Made by a program: the position numbers and the translations under genes
Source of the DNA: Sphingomonadales bacterium
GTDB taxonomy: Bacteria; Pseudomonadota; Alphaproteobacteria; SMXS01
DNA length: 64,000 bases
Assembly (NCBI GenBank): GCA_022844405.1
Contig: JALHLV010000002.1
Span: 62,001-126,000 of the forward strand
Direction: 5' to 3'
In this document: piece after piece, positions 59,249 through 62,658 of the stretch
Position numbering within the stretch: the stretch's first letter is position 1
Layout of the letters: each line of letters opens with the position of its first letter
The notes under the pieces: generated by a model
The model's database searches: none
The model's input: the letters and a program-made list of their open reading frames with translations, nothing else
Told to the model about the DNA's origin: nothing

Positions 59249-59326
<78 letters not shown>

Positions 59327-59438: not shown

Positions 59439-60668
59439 CTACACCCGGCAGTTCGCCAAGACCTTGTGCGTGCGGTCACGGATGGCGTCGGCGCACATCT
59501 TAACGGCGCTCATTATCGCCGGAACCCCACCGTCGAGGCTTTCGGCGATCTCCGTCAGCCGTTGGAGGAGCTCGTCAGCCAGGCTCTCCACCCGCCGTGC
59601 CGTGGCGGCGGGCGCCAGGCCAACAGACCTGGCGAACTGCTCCCAATGCCGCCGCTCGAGGTATTCGGCGCGAGGCTTGTCGGCGATCTTCATCGCCATG
59701 TTGCGGGTGATGTTGTCGTAGATCAGCGACGTCATGGCGTCATAGAGCGGCGCCAGCCGGCAACCGGATCGATCCAGCAGCAGGCTGTAGTTCTTGGCAT
59801 GACGGTCGGTATCGCCGATGCAGTTGGAGAAGATCACCATGTCGAGCAGCGTCAGTCGGTCACGCGCCGCCGCGGTGGAGTGACGGACTATCGTGTCGAA
59901 CAGCTGCTTCAGGGTCGGCCCGCCGGAGGCCTGGTACTTCTCGGTCGGATAGCGGCCAAGCGCCTGGCAGAAATCCTCCTGGTGCGACCGCCTCACCGTT
60001 CTGTCTTCGGTCATGCTTCGATCGTAGCGGCGCACCAGAAGGTACGGGCGGCCCTCCGCATCGCCATAGGAAACCTCCGCCGCAGGAATGCCGAGCGCCC
60101 CAGCCAGCCTCATGCACAGCAGCTCGTTCTCCACCGATGCGTGCAGGCGCTCGCTCGCCGGCTTGATGATGTGTGTCGAGGCTGCGCCACCGACAGGGAG
60201 CATGATACGGCCGTCGATGATGGCGACGACCATCTTGCTCTGTGCGCCGGCGAGCGAGAGCGTCACGCCCTCATCACCTATCAGGAGCGGCCGCTGCGGC
60301 AGCCGTCGCATGTGCTCCGCGAGTGCGTGCTCATCCAGCGCCTCGTAGCGCCCCGTCTCGGGCGCCTCCGGCCCACCGATCGACAGAGCTCCCGCGGTAT
60401 CACGCCCGATCTCCTCGAGCATGCCATAGACGTCGCCCGTACTACGGCCAAGGATCCGCCCGACCATCTCAAGCTGACGTTCTTCGGGCAGCAGATTTGC
60501 GAACCAGGGCGTCGCCACGTCGATGGGGTAGACGCCTTCCACAGGAGGCATTGACACCGAGATAGCGAACCCTTCTCGGATCCAGTCGCGGTCATACGTG
60601 AACGCCAGGCCCCCGCTGGCGCGCTCCAGGATGCCGACACGCTGTTGTTCGAACCAGACACCCAGCAT
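59439..60668 (-). CDS. hipA: HipA-family serine/threonine kinase toxin
   Basis: A 409-residue kinase of the HipA type. Landmarks are LSLAGAQSKMVV (glycine-rich loop region), HQEDFCQALGRYPTEKYQ, catalytic loop DTDRHAKN with Asp288 and Asn293, and a magnesium-type YDAMTS. E. coli HipA inactivates glutamyl-tRNA synthetase by phosphorylation and causes persistence. The antitoxin hipB lies 2 bases upstream. The N-terminal first domain is somewhat short compared with E. coli. The target in this host is unknown. Confidence 0.9.
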   Translation of the reverse strand: MLGVWFEQQRVGILERASGGLAFTYDRDWIREGFAISVSMPPVEGVYPIDVATPWFANLLPEERQLEMVGRILGRSTGDVYGMLEEIGRDTAGALSIGGPEAPETGRYEALDEHALAEHMRRLPQRPLLIGDEGVTLSLAGAQSKMVVAIIDGRIMLPVGGAASTHIIKPASERLHASVENELLCMRLAGALGIPAAEVSYGDAEGRPYLLVRRYDRSMTEDRTVRRSHQEDFCQALGRYPTEKYQASGGPTLKQLFDTIVRHSTAAARDRLTLLDMVIFSNCIGDTDRHAKNYSLLLDRSGCRLAPLYDAMTSLIYDNITRNMAMKIADKPRAEYLERRHWEQFARSVGLAPAATARRVESLADELLQRLTEIAESLDGGVPAIMSAVKMCADAIRDRTHKVLANCRV

Positions 60669-60670
60669 TG

Positions 60671-60895
60671 TCAGGCCGGCAACGAAGCGCTTAGTCGGAT
60701 ATTCAGCAGCCCGGCGATGCGTAGGGCCGGCTCAAGACTGGCGCTCTGTTTGCCGCGCTCCAGCTCGCTGACAAACCGCAGACTGACACCCGCGGCAAGA
60801 GCGAGCTCGCCCTGGGTCAGACCCTGGGCCTTGCGAGCATGCCGAATGGCCGCGCCAAATTCGGCCGCATTGGTTATGGGCGTGATATCGATCAT
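60671..60895 (-). CDS. hipB: HipB-type antitoxin (Xre-family HTH)
   Basis: A 74-residue Cro/C1-type helix-turn-helix protein (AAIRHARKAQGLTQGELALAAGVSLRFVSELERGKQ). It binds DNA as a dimer and neutralises HipA. Upstream of its start lie three identical-type palindromes spaced exactly 49 bases apart, the first overlapping the ribosome-binding region, so it probably represses its own operon. The start is the ATG with AGGA upstream. Confidence 0.92.
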   Translation of the reverse strand: MIDITPITNAAEFGAAIRHARKAQGLTQGELALAAGVSLRFVSELERGKQSASLEPALRIAGLLNIRLSASLPA

Positions 60896-60898
60896 TTT

Positions 60899-61006
60899 CC
60901 TGATCGGGTAAATACAACGATCTTAGCACGGTTACAATTCAATTCACCCCGATCGGGATCAATATTGTCAGACGCCAGACATCCACCATCAATTCTCCCG
61001 ATCGGG
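60899..61006 (-). promoter_or_regulatory. Three equally spaced HipB operator palindromes
   Basis: CCTGATCGGG at 60899-60908, CCCGATCGGG at 60948-60957 and CCCGATCGGG at 60997-61006. Start-to-start distances are exactly 49 and 49 bases. Sites 2 and 3 also share flanking AATTC to the left and GGAT to the right. The proximal site lies 4 bases before the hipB ATG and covers its ribosome site. The symmetry and position fit autorepression by HipB dimers. Confidence 0.75.
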
Positions 61007-61173
61007 ATTTCCGCAGGGGGAAGTCGATCAGATAGACAGCCCGATGTCGGTTAGTTTGAAATGTCTAGTCGCGATGCAGGCAATCGTCACAAAGGCCATG
61101 CTCACCAGCCGAGGCCAGTGCTTGGTTGAAAGGTAGTCCGCAGTGCATGCAGCGGGGCAAATCGTGGTTTGCA

Positions 61174-62595
61174 TCAGGCTCGTTCAGGGGTTGCGGATCG
61201 GTAATCTTGCCGCTCCCGCCAGGCCTTCAATTCGAGCGGGCGAAGGCCGAACCGAACGACATTGCCTTCGTGAAGCGACGCCACTTCAGCCAGAACCAGG
61301 CTTACGAAGCGTTCATGGTCATCCGCGGCAACCGATCCCGGCGCGACATCGGCGACGGTCGCCGCGTCGGGCGCCAGCCCTGCTCTCACAATCTCCTGCA
61401 GAGCGTGGGCAAGCTCCTTGCGGTAGCGCAAACGGAACGTGTCAGGCGGCACCAGCTGCTGCTGAACGGCGACGTATTGCTGGCAGGAGCGTTCGTATGC
61501 CCAGACGAACACGTCACGAAGCAAGTCGACGCGGTTGAGCTCATAGACGCCCAGCATGCCGTCGACATAGGCCTGCCGAGGCACATCGACGAAGGAGAGC
61601 GGCGACAGATTGTGCCGGATCAACGGGATGTTTGCCGCCACGCGCGAAACCCGCTGGTTCACATCCTCGAAGGGCTGCAGGTAGGGCAGATGCACCATGA
61701 GGAAGAACGCCTGCTCGAACGGATCGGCGATCTCCGCGGCCATCTCGACGACGATACCGAACAGCTCTTCCAGACGCTGCGGCAAGGCGACCGGCCGGTA
61801 CAAACTGCCCCCGATCACGACCGGGCCTTGCCGGATACGCCCGCACGCCATGGGGTCGCGCATCAGTCCGTCCGAGAGCAGCGCATGGAGGGCGATGACC
61901 GTCTCCGGCGTTACCACGGCATGCGCGGGGTCGTCGACGAGATATTCGATCGCGGCCTTATGGTTCAGGATCATCTGGGTTTCGAACGCATCCTTGCCCT
62001 CGGCCGCCTCGCCGAACTCGATCAGCCGCTCGGTGTCGAGCAGGCTGTACGTGTTGCCCTCGAGCCGTGAGGAAGCCCACGACAGGTCGATCAGCAGGCG
62101 GGTCAGGATGTCCCGTGCGAAGGTGCCCGCCGGGGCCTGCACGGCCGGGGAGCGCCCCATCGTGCGCAGCTGGGCTCGCAAGGCATCAGGCAGATAATGG
62201 GTCCGGTTGGGGCGGTATTGCTCGAGGAACTCGATCCGGTAGCTGACCGGCCGACGCTGCTGGATCGGTTGTGACACGTAGGCCCTGACCTCTTCGCCCT
62301 CGGGCGAGGTTGGCACATAGACAGAGGCAGTCGCCGAGAGGGTGGCGTCTTCAAGGGTGACGTTCGCACCCGCTGTTATCGGCTTGATATGGTACTTGAG
62401 CGCTCTGCCCCCGCCTTTAGTTGCAATCCGATGCTGTGTGAGAAGCTGGGCAAGGCGGCGCTGGAGAGTGCGCCGCGAGTAGCCGGCGCCAAGCTCATTG
62501 AGAAGCTGTTCCACGCCCACACCCTGCGGATGCCGGGCGATGAGGCCAGCCATCTCATCGAGCTCCTCGGATGGAATAACCTTCGGCACTGGCAC
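61174..62595 (-). CDS. Fic-fold protein with N-terminal winged helix; degenerate Fic motif
   Basis: A 473-residue protein. Residues about 1-75 form a winged helix-turn-helix (LLNELGAGYSRRTLQRRLAQL). The Fic domain has an inhibitory helix motif S-x-x-x-E-G (Ser175 to Glu179, Gly180, ASSRLEGNTYS) and a core QPFEDVNQRVSR at residues 307-318. The canonical core is HPFxDGNGRxxR, so the catalytic His is Gln307 and two glycines are Val312 and Gln314, while Asp311, Asn313, Arg315 and Arg318 remain. It may be a non-AMPylating or non-catalytic variant, or act as a transcriptional regulator. The GTG start follows a palindromic promoter. Confidence 0.85.
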   Translation of the reverse strand: MPVPKVIPSEELDEMAGLIARHPQGVGVEQLLNELGAGYSRRTLQRRLAQLLTQHRIATKGGGRALKYHIKPITAGANVTLEDATLSATASVYVPTSPEGEEVRAYVSQPIQQRRPVSYRIEFLEQYRPNRTHYLPDALRAQLRTMGRSPAVQAPAGTFARDILTRLLIDLSWASSRLEGNTYSLLDTERLIEFGEAAEGKDAFETQMILNHKAAIEYLVDDPAHAVVTPETVIALHALLSDGLMRDPMACGRIRQGPVVIGGSLYRPVALPQRLEELFGIVVEMAAEIADPFEQAFFLMVHLPYLQPFEDVNQRVSRVAANIPLIRHNLSPLSFVDVPRQAYVDGMLGVYELNRVDLLRDVFVWAYERSCQQYVAVQQQLVPPDTFRLRYRKELAHALQEIVRAGLAPDAATVADVAPGSVAADDHERFVSLVLAEVASLHEGNVVRFGLRPLELKAWRERQDYRSATPERA

Positions 62596-62619
62596 CTATC
62601 TGTCGCGATTATCTCTTTT

Positions 62620-62658
62620 GTGCCGTATAATATGGCACGATTAACTGTTAACGTGCCA
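62620..62658 (-). promoter_or_regulatory. Palindromic promoter/operator of the fic gene
   Basis: GTGCC at 62620-62624 pairs GGCAC at 62634-62638, and TGGCACG at 62633-62639 pairs CGTGCCA at 62652-62658, with AT-rich ATTAACTGTTAA between, which is itself nearly palindromic. The -10-like TATTAT on the minus strand (about 62627-62632) lies in the middle. A dimeric regulator, perhaps the winged helix of the Fic protein itself, could bind. Confidence 0.55.

What the first reader, a model, noticed from the sequence alone, without database searches (positions are those of the whole stretch)
61174..62595. Fic-fold protein lacking the catalytic histidine, with a DNA-binding domain
The core reads QPFEDVNQRVSR where active Fic enzymes have HPFxDGNGRxxR. 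The nucleotide-binding Asn and Args remain, and an S-x-x-x-E-G inhibitory motif is present. A winged helix precedes it. It may be a nucleotide-sensing repressor or use another chemistry. I recall a conserved subfamily with the PYLQPFxDVN pattern, but cannot verify it.
Basis: partly seen in the sequence, partly recalled or inferred. Interest (0 to 1): 0.6.

Follow-up and report, generated by a model that had tools for sequence, protein, structure and literature searches.

The report
Self-repressing Fic protein lacking catalytic histidine
This gene encodes a DNA-binding protein built on an enzyme fold (Fic) whose key catalytic histidine was replaced long ago by glutamine in a large, widespread bacterial family; it most likely switches off its own gene while its remodelled pocket senses or handles an unknown small molecule.

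Summary
The 473-aa protein (61174-62595, minus strand) is a winged helix, a class II Fic fold (AlphaFold2 pLDDT 93; best solved match FICD, Z 24.5) and a C-terminal helical domain without a known fold. Gln307 sits where Fic enzymes have the catalytic His. The substitution is not decay. All relatives in one well-supported clade (99/93) lack the His. About 140 sampled members have Gln and one Neisseria member has Arg; the next homologues out all have HPFxDGNGR. The clade also fixes Tyr183, Met208, Tyr351 and Glu352, has Lys at 314 (Gln in this protein), and keeps the inhibitory Glu and nucleotide-pocket Asp, Asn and Arg. The Gln motif was published in 2015 as clade D2 of the 'Doc' subfamily, function unknown; wHTH-bearing members like this one do not fit that paper's 'usually single-domain' description. 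New here: upstream of the gene lie arrays of half-sites whose sequence covaries with the winged helix's recognition helix. In this genome the palindrome occurs once, at this promoter. The gene is patchy, mobile and has no conserved partner. Best reading: a self-repressing, stand-alone module with a non-AMPylating, nucleotide-type pocket. Sensor versus new chemistry is undecided.

The parts
61174..62595 (-). wHTH-Fic-helical protein, 473 aa, Gln-type Fic
   Evidence: intact frame, homologues at 40-70% identity over 96-97% of length
62380..62574 (-). N-terminal winged helix-turn-helix (residues 8-72)
   Evidence: AlphaFold2 helices 9-20, 28-35, 41-53 and strands 57-60, 67-70; some relatives match Pfam HTH/winged-helix models
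62437..62475 (-). predicted recognition helix, residues 41-53 (RRTLQRRLAQLLT)
   Evidence: residue 46 and the helix N-cap residue 40 covary with half-site class
61453..62190 (-). class II Fic fold, residues 136-381
   Evidence: VIA-align Z 24.5, rmsd 2.5 over 234 residues to FICD 4u0u
62056..62073 (-). inhibitory-helix motif S175-SRL-E179-G180
   Evidence: S175, E179, G180 are 122/122 conserved in the Gln group
61642..61677 (-). degenerate Fic motif Q307-PFEDVNQRVS-R318
   Evidence: His replaced by Gln, second Gly replaced by Lys in the family (Gln in this copy)
61540..61545 (-). clade-specific invariant pair Tyr351-Glu352
   Evidence: 122/122 in the Gln group, not conserved in His-type relatives
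61177..61455 (-). C-terminal all-helical domain, residues 381-473, no known fold
   Evidence: modelled alone at pLDDT 92.1; no PDB match with E <= 0.001
62633..62658 (.). operator palindrome TGGCACGATTAACTGTTAACGTGCCA
   Evidence: single exact TGGCACG-N(4-20)-CGTGCCA site in the 3.78-Mb genome
62601..62624 (.). two further half-site-like elements (TGTCGCGAT 62601-62609; GTGCC 62620-62624) between operator and start codon
   Evidence: sequence; resemble half-site classes of relatives; inferred

Best explanation
It is a stand-alone, horizontally moving, self-repressing protein. Its N-terminal winged helix binds an array of half-sites that covers its own promoter and keeps its own expression low (supported by sequence, not shown biochemically). 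Its Fic fold has been rebuilt as a non-AMPylating pocket. The catalytic base is gone (His to Gln) and the second motif Gly is Lys (Gln here), while the inhibitory Glu, the Asp, the Asn and both Arg of the nucleotide pocket are kept and new Tyr/Met/Tyr-Glu residues are fixed. I infer that this pocket binds a nucleotide or other phosphate-bearing ligand, that occupancy changes the protein's DNA binding or its action on a target, and that the pocket is not merely an accessory to the winged helix, because members without that domain keep the same residues. Steps supported by sequence or model: fold, conservation, single origin, operator arrays and covariation, no second operator in this genome. 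Steps inferred: ligand binding, repression, and the output.
For: Single-origin Gln clade, support 99/93. Gln in all 122 motif-bearing close relatives (a few entries are redundant) and in 18 more from an unbiased phylum search, with a clean step to HPFxDGNGR beyond. Conserved pocket residues E179, D311, N313, R315, R318 and clade-specific Y183, M208, Y351, E352. Class II FICD-like fold at pLDDT 92.7. Upstream arrays: 68 of 120 upstream regions hold an 8-mer three or more times, against 3 of 120 shuffled and 2 of 120 gene-body controls. Half-sites are 7 to 16 per kb upstream against 0.09 to 0.52 per kb in the rest of the loci, setting aside one class with a single locus. Half-site class follows HTH residues: Asn40 with GTCGC 22/22, Tyr46 with TTGCGC 9/9. 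Operator unique in own genome. Half-sites lie inside half of the promoter-like matches found (21 of 42). No conserved neighbour in 99 contexts. Patchy: absent from the 9 other sampled genomes of its genus and family.
Against: No binding, repression or ligand data exist. A repressor whose only visible target is its own gene needs some other output, so an effector or enzymatic role is probable but unidentified. A conserved Gln, Lys, Tyr and Glu could equally form a different active site. Covariation p-values ignore shared ancestry; the Tyr46 members may be a single lineage.
Confidence: 0.55

Rival explanations
1. It is an active enzyme with a different Fic-fold chemistry (phosphate, nucleotide or sugar transfer, or hydrolysis using Glu179 and Gln307/Glu352). 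Self-repression only limits the dose of a solitary toxin or phage-defence effector, as in CccR or Sofic.
For: The Gln/Lys/Tyr-Glu set is fixed even in members without the winged helix. The gene stands alone on mobile DNA. CccR and Sofic are Fic toxins; CccR represses its own gene (PMC9755527; PMC12249575). AvrB, whose catalytic motif is divergent, is a rhamnosyltransferase (PMC10866546). PADLOC Sofic and PDC-S04 models match the Fic domain.
Against: Known AMP and deAMP chemistry needs the His (FICD, PMC8373988; CccR H192A). One family member has Arg there, which suits phosphate binding better than general-base catalysis. No defence-island enrichment was demonstrated.
Confidence: 0.3
2. It is a trans-acting transcription factor: besides itself it controls phage, plasmid or a few host genes, and the Fic pocket is the effector site.
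For: Winged helix with evolving specificity; occurs in prophage regions and on plasmids.
Against: In the own genome the palindrome occurs only at its own promoter. In 15 other genomes and records, matches to the palindrome away from the fic promoter mostly lack the AT-rich flanks and are little more frequent than the reversed control. Pattern searches miss diverged sites.
Confidence: 0.12
3. It still AMPylates, with reduced or alternative base chemistry, as suggested for the Gln clade in 2015.
For: Khater and Mohanty argue that such proteins need not be dead, citing residual activity of His mutants (PMC4454073).
Against: Loss of the base, loss of the second motif Gly and gain of Lys occur together with the inhibitory Glu kept; an Arg variant exists.
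Confidence: 0.05
4. It is a decaying Fic pseudogene.
For: This copy alone has Gln314 instead of Lys.
Against: Intact 473-codon frame and conserved upstream operator; the motif is fixed across a clade down to about 27% identity and several phyla.
Confidence: 0.03

Closest known systems
Gln clade 'D2' of Fic/Doc proteins (Khater and Mohanty 2015, PMC4454073)
   Same: Motif Qx[F/Y]x[D/E][G/V]NKR in place of the His motif; widespread in bacteria; selected, function unknown.
   Different: That clade was called usually single-domain and grouped with Doc. This protein and most relatives sampled here have a winged helix and a C-terminal domain, keep the class II inhibitory motif and final Arg, and resemble FICD by profile and fold; no chain labelled Doc came up in the profile search. 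This copy has NQR.
CccR of Yersinia pseudotuberculosis (PMC9755527)
   Same: Single-protein Fic plus DNA-binding domain, class II; represses its own promoter.
   Different: CccR has H192PFGNGNGR, AMPylates FtsZ, has a C-terminal HTH and is secreted by T6SS; here no His and an N-terminal winged helix.
CbFic2 of Coxiella burnetii (PMC10628234)
   Same: Fic fold coupled to a DNA-binding HTH; DNA binding changes the state of the Fic domain.
   Different: CbFic2 has AMPylase and deAMPylase activity; HTH is C-terminal.
FICD / C. elegans FIC-1
   Same: Closest solved fold and sequence profile (Z 24.5; profile E 1e-24); N-terminal inhibitory Glu, Asp, Asn, Arg pocket.
   Different: FICD keeps the His needed for AMPylation and deAMPylation; no winged helix.
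Sofic anti-phage protein (PMC12249575)
   Same: Class II Fic protein; PADLOC model matches this Fic domain (4e-10).
   Different: Sofic AMPylates; the AS1 study found a small downstream antitoxin; no such partner is conserved here.

Membership tests
Fic/Fido fold superfamily (PF02661) | Profile score above curated cut-off and Fic fold | tested here: met
   35.3 bits vs 24, 51/51 family members match at E <= 0.01; FICD Z 24.5, rmsd 2.5, 234 aligned
AMPylating class II Fic enzymes | Catalytic His in HxFx[D/E]GN[G/K]R | tested here: not met
   Gln307; clade-wide
AMPylating class II Fic enzymes | N-terminal inhibitory motif (S/T)xxxE(G/N) | tested here: met
   S175xxxE179G180, invariant in the clade
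AMPylating class II Fic enzymes | AMP transfer activity | not testable with these tools
   needs biochemistry
Gln clade D2 (Khater and Mohanty 2015) | Motif Qx[F/Y]x[D/E][G/V]NKR | tested here: inconclusive
   Family: met in most (Q and NKR; the residue before N varies more than G/V). This copy: QPFEDVNQR, Lys replaced by Gln
Gln clade D2 (Khater and Mohanty 2015) | Usually single-domain, placed with Doc | tested here: not met
   Three domains in the model; closest to FICD by profile and fold. Doc proteins were not in the tree, so the placement itself stays open
HTH-Fic autorepressors (CccR type) | DNA-binding domain recognising own promoter | tested here: inconclusive
   Operator arrays and covariation support it; binding not assayed
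HTH-Fic autorepressors (CccR type) | Active Fic His motif and AMPylation of a target | tested here: not met
   No His; activity not assayed
FicTA-type toxin-antitoxin | Conserved adjacent antitoxin gene supplying the inhibitory helix | tested here: not met
   No conserved neighbour among 99 loci with context; inhibitory motif is internal
Sofic-type phage defence | Protection against phage | not testable with these tools
   Only Fic-domain similarity

The most novel reading that the evidence does not exclude
A whole, ancient Fic lineage has given up AMP transfer for a Gln/Lys/Tyr-Glu pocket that senses a nucleotide-type signal. Fused to a winged helix, it forms a family of Fic-derived, ligand-gated self-repressors carried on mobile DNA, probably one-gene stress or phage-response modules.
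Probability: 0.3. Interest if true: 0.75.

Novelty: new variant of a known kind. Interest (0 to 1): 0.52.

Why it matters
Fic proteins are treated as AMP-transferases defined by one histidine. This clade shows that the histidine can be lost in a single event while the nucleotide pocket and the 'inhibitory' Glu stay under strict selection, so the pocket must have another job. The operator arrays give a direct handle: they predict which DNA each protein binds, and let ligand effects be read out as release from DNA. That makes the open question about the Gln clade, raised in 2015 and still unanswered in the literature I could search, directly testable.

Tried and rejected
Pseudogene or decay: rejected by clade-wide conservation. 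Another His replacing the lost one: none found. Conserved partner or antitoxin: none; HipA-type genes lie near only 5 of 99 loci including this one. Defence-island neighbourhood: a few RM and candidate genes among 130 neighbours, no control set, so no claim. Known fold for the C-terminal domain: no PDB match of significance. The first operator pattern I tried had a wrong spacer and found nothing; the corrected one found the single site. The consensus promoter scan found no sigma-70 match inside the operator region. The genome-contig scan used a Gln-containing search pattern, so its 80 loci cannot test Gln fixation; that rests.

Full report
Observation. The ORF at 61174-62595 (minus strand, GTG start) encodes 473 residues. 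Pfam Fic covers residues 228-323 with 35.3 bits against a cut-off of 24. The motif is Q307-PFEDVNQRVS-R318 where active Fic proteins have HPFxDGNGRxxR, and S175-SRL-E179-G180 fits the inhibitory consensus (S/T)xxxE(G/N).

Architecture. AlphaFold2 with 51 family members gives mean pLDDT 92.7: a winged helix (residues 8-72), a low-confidence linker (74-89), a full class II Fic fold (136-381) and a C-terminal helical domain. The Fic part matches FICD best (Foldseek 2e-8; VIA-align Z 24.5, rmsd 2.5 over 234 residues). A profile of the family finds FICD and C. elegans FIC-1 first among solved structures (E 1e-24) and no chain labelled Doc below E 0.01. The C-terminal domain modelled alone (pLDDT 92.1) has no significant PDB match.

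Is the Gln fixed? Homologues were collected in ways that do not select for Gln: protein searches of plasmids, of relatives, of 398 genomes of the same phylum and of 387 genomes of the phylum of a Verrucomicrobia locus. The genome-contig scan used a Gln-containing pattern and is not counted as a test. Every relative above the gap in similarity that still holds the motif carries Y[LI]Q (one has HLQ); the next homologues (about 24-30% identity) all carry HPF-type motifs. The only exception inside the group is an HTH-less Neisseria gonorrhoeae relative with YLRYFKDCNKR, so the position is Gln, rarely Arg, and His was never seen. A maximum-likelihood tree of the Fic core places 43 Gln sequences on one side of one branch with 99/93 support, present in all 200 bootstrap trees. 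The tree has long branches and no Doc proteins.

What else changed. Comparing 122 Gln sequences with 21 His sequences: Ser175, Glu179, Gly180, His237, Asp311, Asn313, Arg315 and Arg318 are kept. Tyr183, Met208, Tyr305, Gln307, Lys314, Tyr351 and Glu352 are (nearly) fixed in the Gln group and absent or variable in the His group. This copy alone has Gln314. Strict retention of the inhibitory Glu without the catalytic His suggests the Glu is not there to restrain AMPylation. In FICD, Glu234 aligns the hydrolytic water and the His protonates the leaving group (PMC8373988), so simple deAMPylation is also unlikely. The same residues persist in members without a winged helix (Campylobacter plasmid L023, Helicobacter prophage L025, Moraxella plasmid L189), so the pocket has a role beyond controlling an attached DNA-binding domain.

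DNA binding. Reading the upstream regions of relatives revealed arrays of short inverted and direct half-sites such as TGGCGCGATA, TGTCGCGATA, TTGCGCGTA and TGGCACGATTA. In 68 of 120 upstream regions some 8-mer occurs at least three times, against 3 of 120 shuffled and 2 of 120 gene-body controls. For loci with an assigned class, sites occur at 7-16 per kb upstream and 0.09-0.52 per kb elsewhere in the locus, setting aside one class with a single locus. The class tracks the recognition helix: Asn40 occurs only with GTCGC sites (22/22) and Tyr46 only with TTGCGC sites (9/9). The Fisher p-values (about 1e-13 to 1e-12) ignore shared ancestry. The four shortest relatives (L021, L022, L023, L025), in which no complete winged helix was evident, have no such arrays, a small negative control. 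In the window the sites form TGGCACGATTAACTGTTAACGTGCCA at 62633-62658, 37 bases before the start codon, and a search of the whole genome for the palindrome finds this one place only. In relatives, half-sites lie inside 21 of 42 promoter-like matches. I take self-repression as well supported by sequence but unproved.

Context. The gene lies between a tRNA-Ala (59251-59326) with a HipBA pair and a permease gene, in a stretch of 60-65% G+C between flanks of about 68-74%. None of the 9 other sampled genomes of the same genus and family has it, while the nearest plasmid homologue (69.6%) is on a betaproteobacterial plasmid. Elsewhere it sits on plasmids, next to integrases, and as a single opposite-strand gene among phage structural genes. 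No neighbour is conserved. The genome has seven other Fic proteins, all with His.

Mechanism. Favoured: a stand-alone self-repressor whose Fic pocket, no longer an AMP-transferase, binds a nucleotide-type ligand that alters DNA binding or another output. Shown by sequence or model: fold, conservation, single origin, operator arrays, covariation, unique operator. Inferred: ligand, repression, output. The main rival is a different chemistry in a self-limited toxin or defence protein; AvrB, with a divergent Fido motif, transfers rhamnose (PMC10866546), so this cannot be dismissed.

Known or new. The Gln motif was reported in 2015 as clade D2, 45 sequences, 'usually single-domain', under Doc, function unknown (PMC4454073). 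Self-repressing HTH-Fic proteins are known with an active His (CccR, PMC9755527), and DNA-controlled Fic activity is known from CbFic2 (PMC10628234). The combination of Gln pocket, N-terminal winged helix, new C-terminal domain and covarying operator arrays was not found in the literature searched (open-licence papers only). I file it as a new variant of a known kind.

Noticed in passing
window 59439-60911: A HipA-type kinase gene (59439-60668, minus) preceded by a small HTH (HipB-like) ORF, with repeated CGATCGGG boxes upstream (about 60900-61010) that look like its own operator. It forms a low-GC island with the Fic gene beside tRNA-Ala 59251-59326.
   Followed up: partly
window 61065-61160 (-): A 31-codon ORF (MPRCMHCGLPFNQALASAGEHGLCDDCLHRD) with two CxxC pairs, just downstream of the Fic gene; possibly a tiny zinc-ribbon protein.
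   Followed up: no
L190 (Neisseria gonorrhoeae NZ_CP119142.1, record 1417485-1418105): An HTH-less member of the clade has Arg at the Gln position (YLRYFKDCNKRTAR), with the Tyr-Glu pair and Lys kept.
   Followed up: partly
L023:3031-4810 (Campylobacter fetus plasmid pCfviMP1): A HipA-domain gene ends one base before an HTH-less Gln-Fic gene begins on the same strand, suggesting an operon.
   Followed up: partly
L056, L109, L110, L111, L116: The Gln-Fic gene sits as a single opposite-strand insertion inside the same phage structural-gene cluster in several prophage or virus contigs, like a moron.
   Followed up: partly
L117, L118, L120 upstream regions: Very divergent Gln-Fic genes on virus contigs carry four or more AAGCTCAAA-type half-sites upstream, a different operator class.
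   Followed up: no
L191 (Bacteroides finegoldii plasmid 24): An operon of a small HTH regulator, a class II His-type Fic protein and a second His-type Fic protein.
   Followed up: no
own genome: The genome carries eight Fic-domain genes; seven have the His motif and only the window's copy has Gln.
   Followed up: partly
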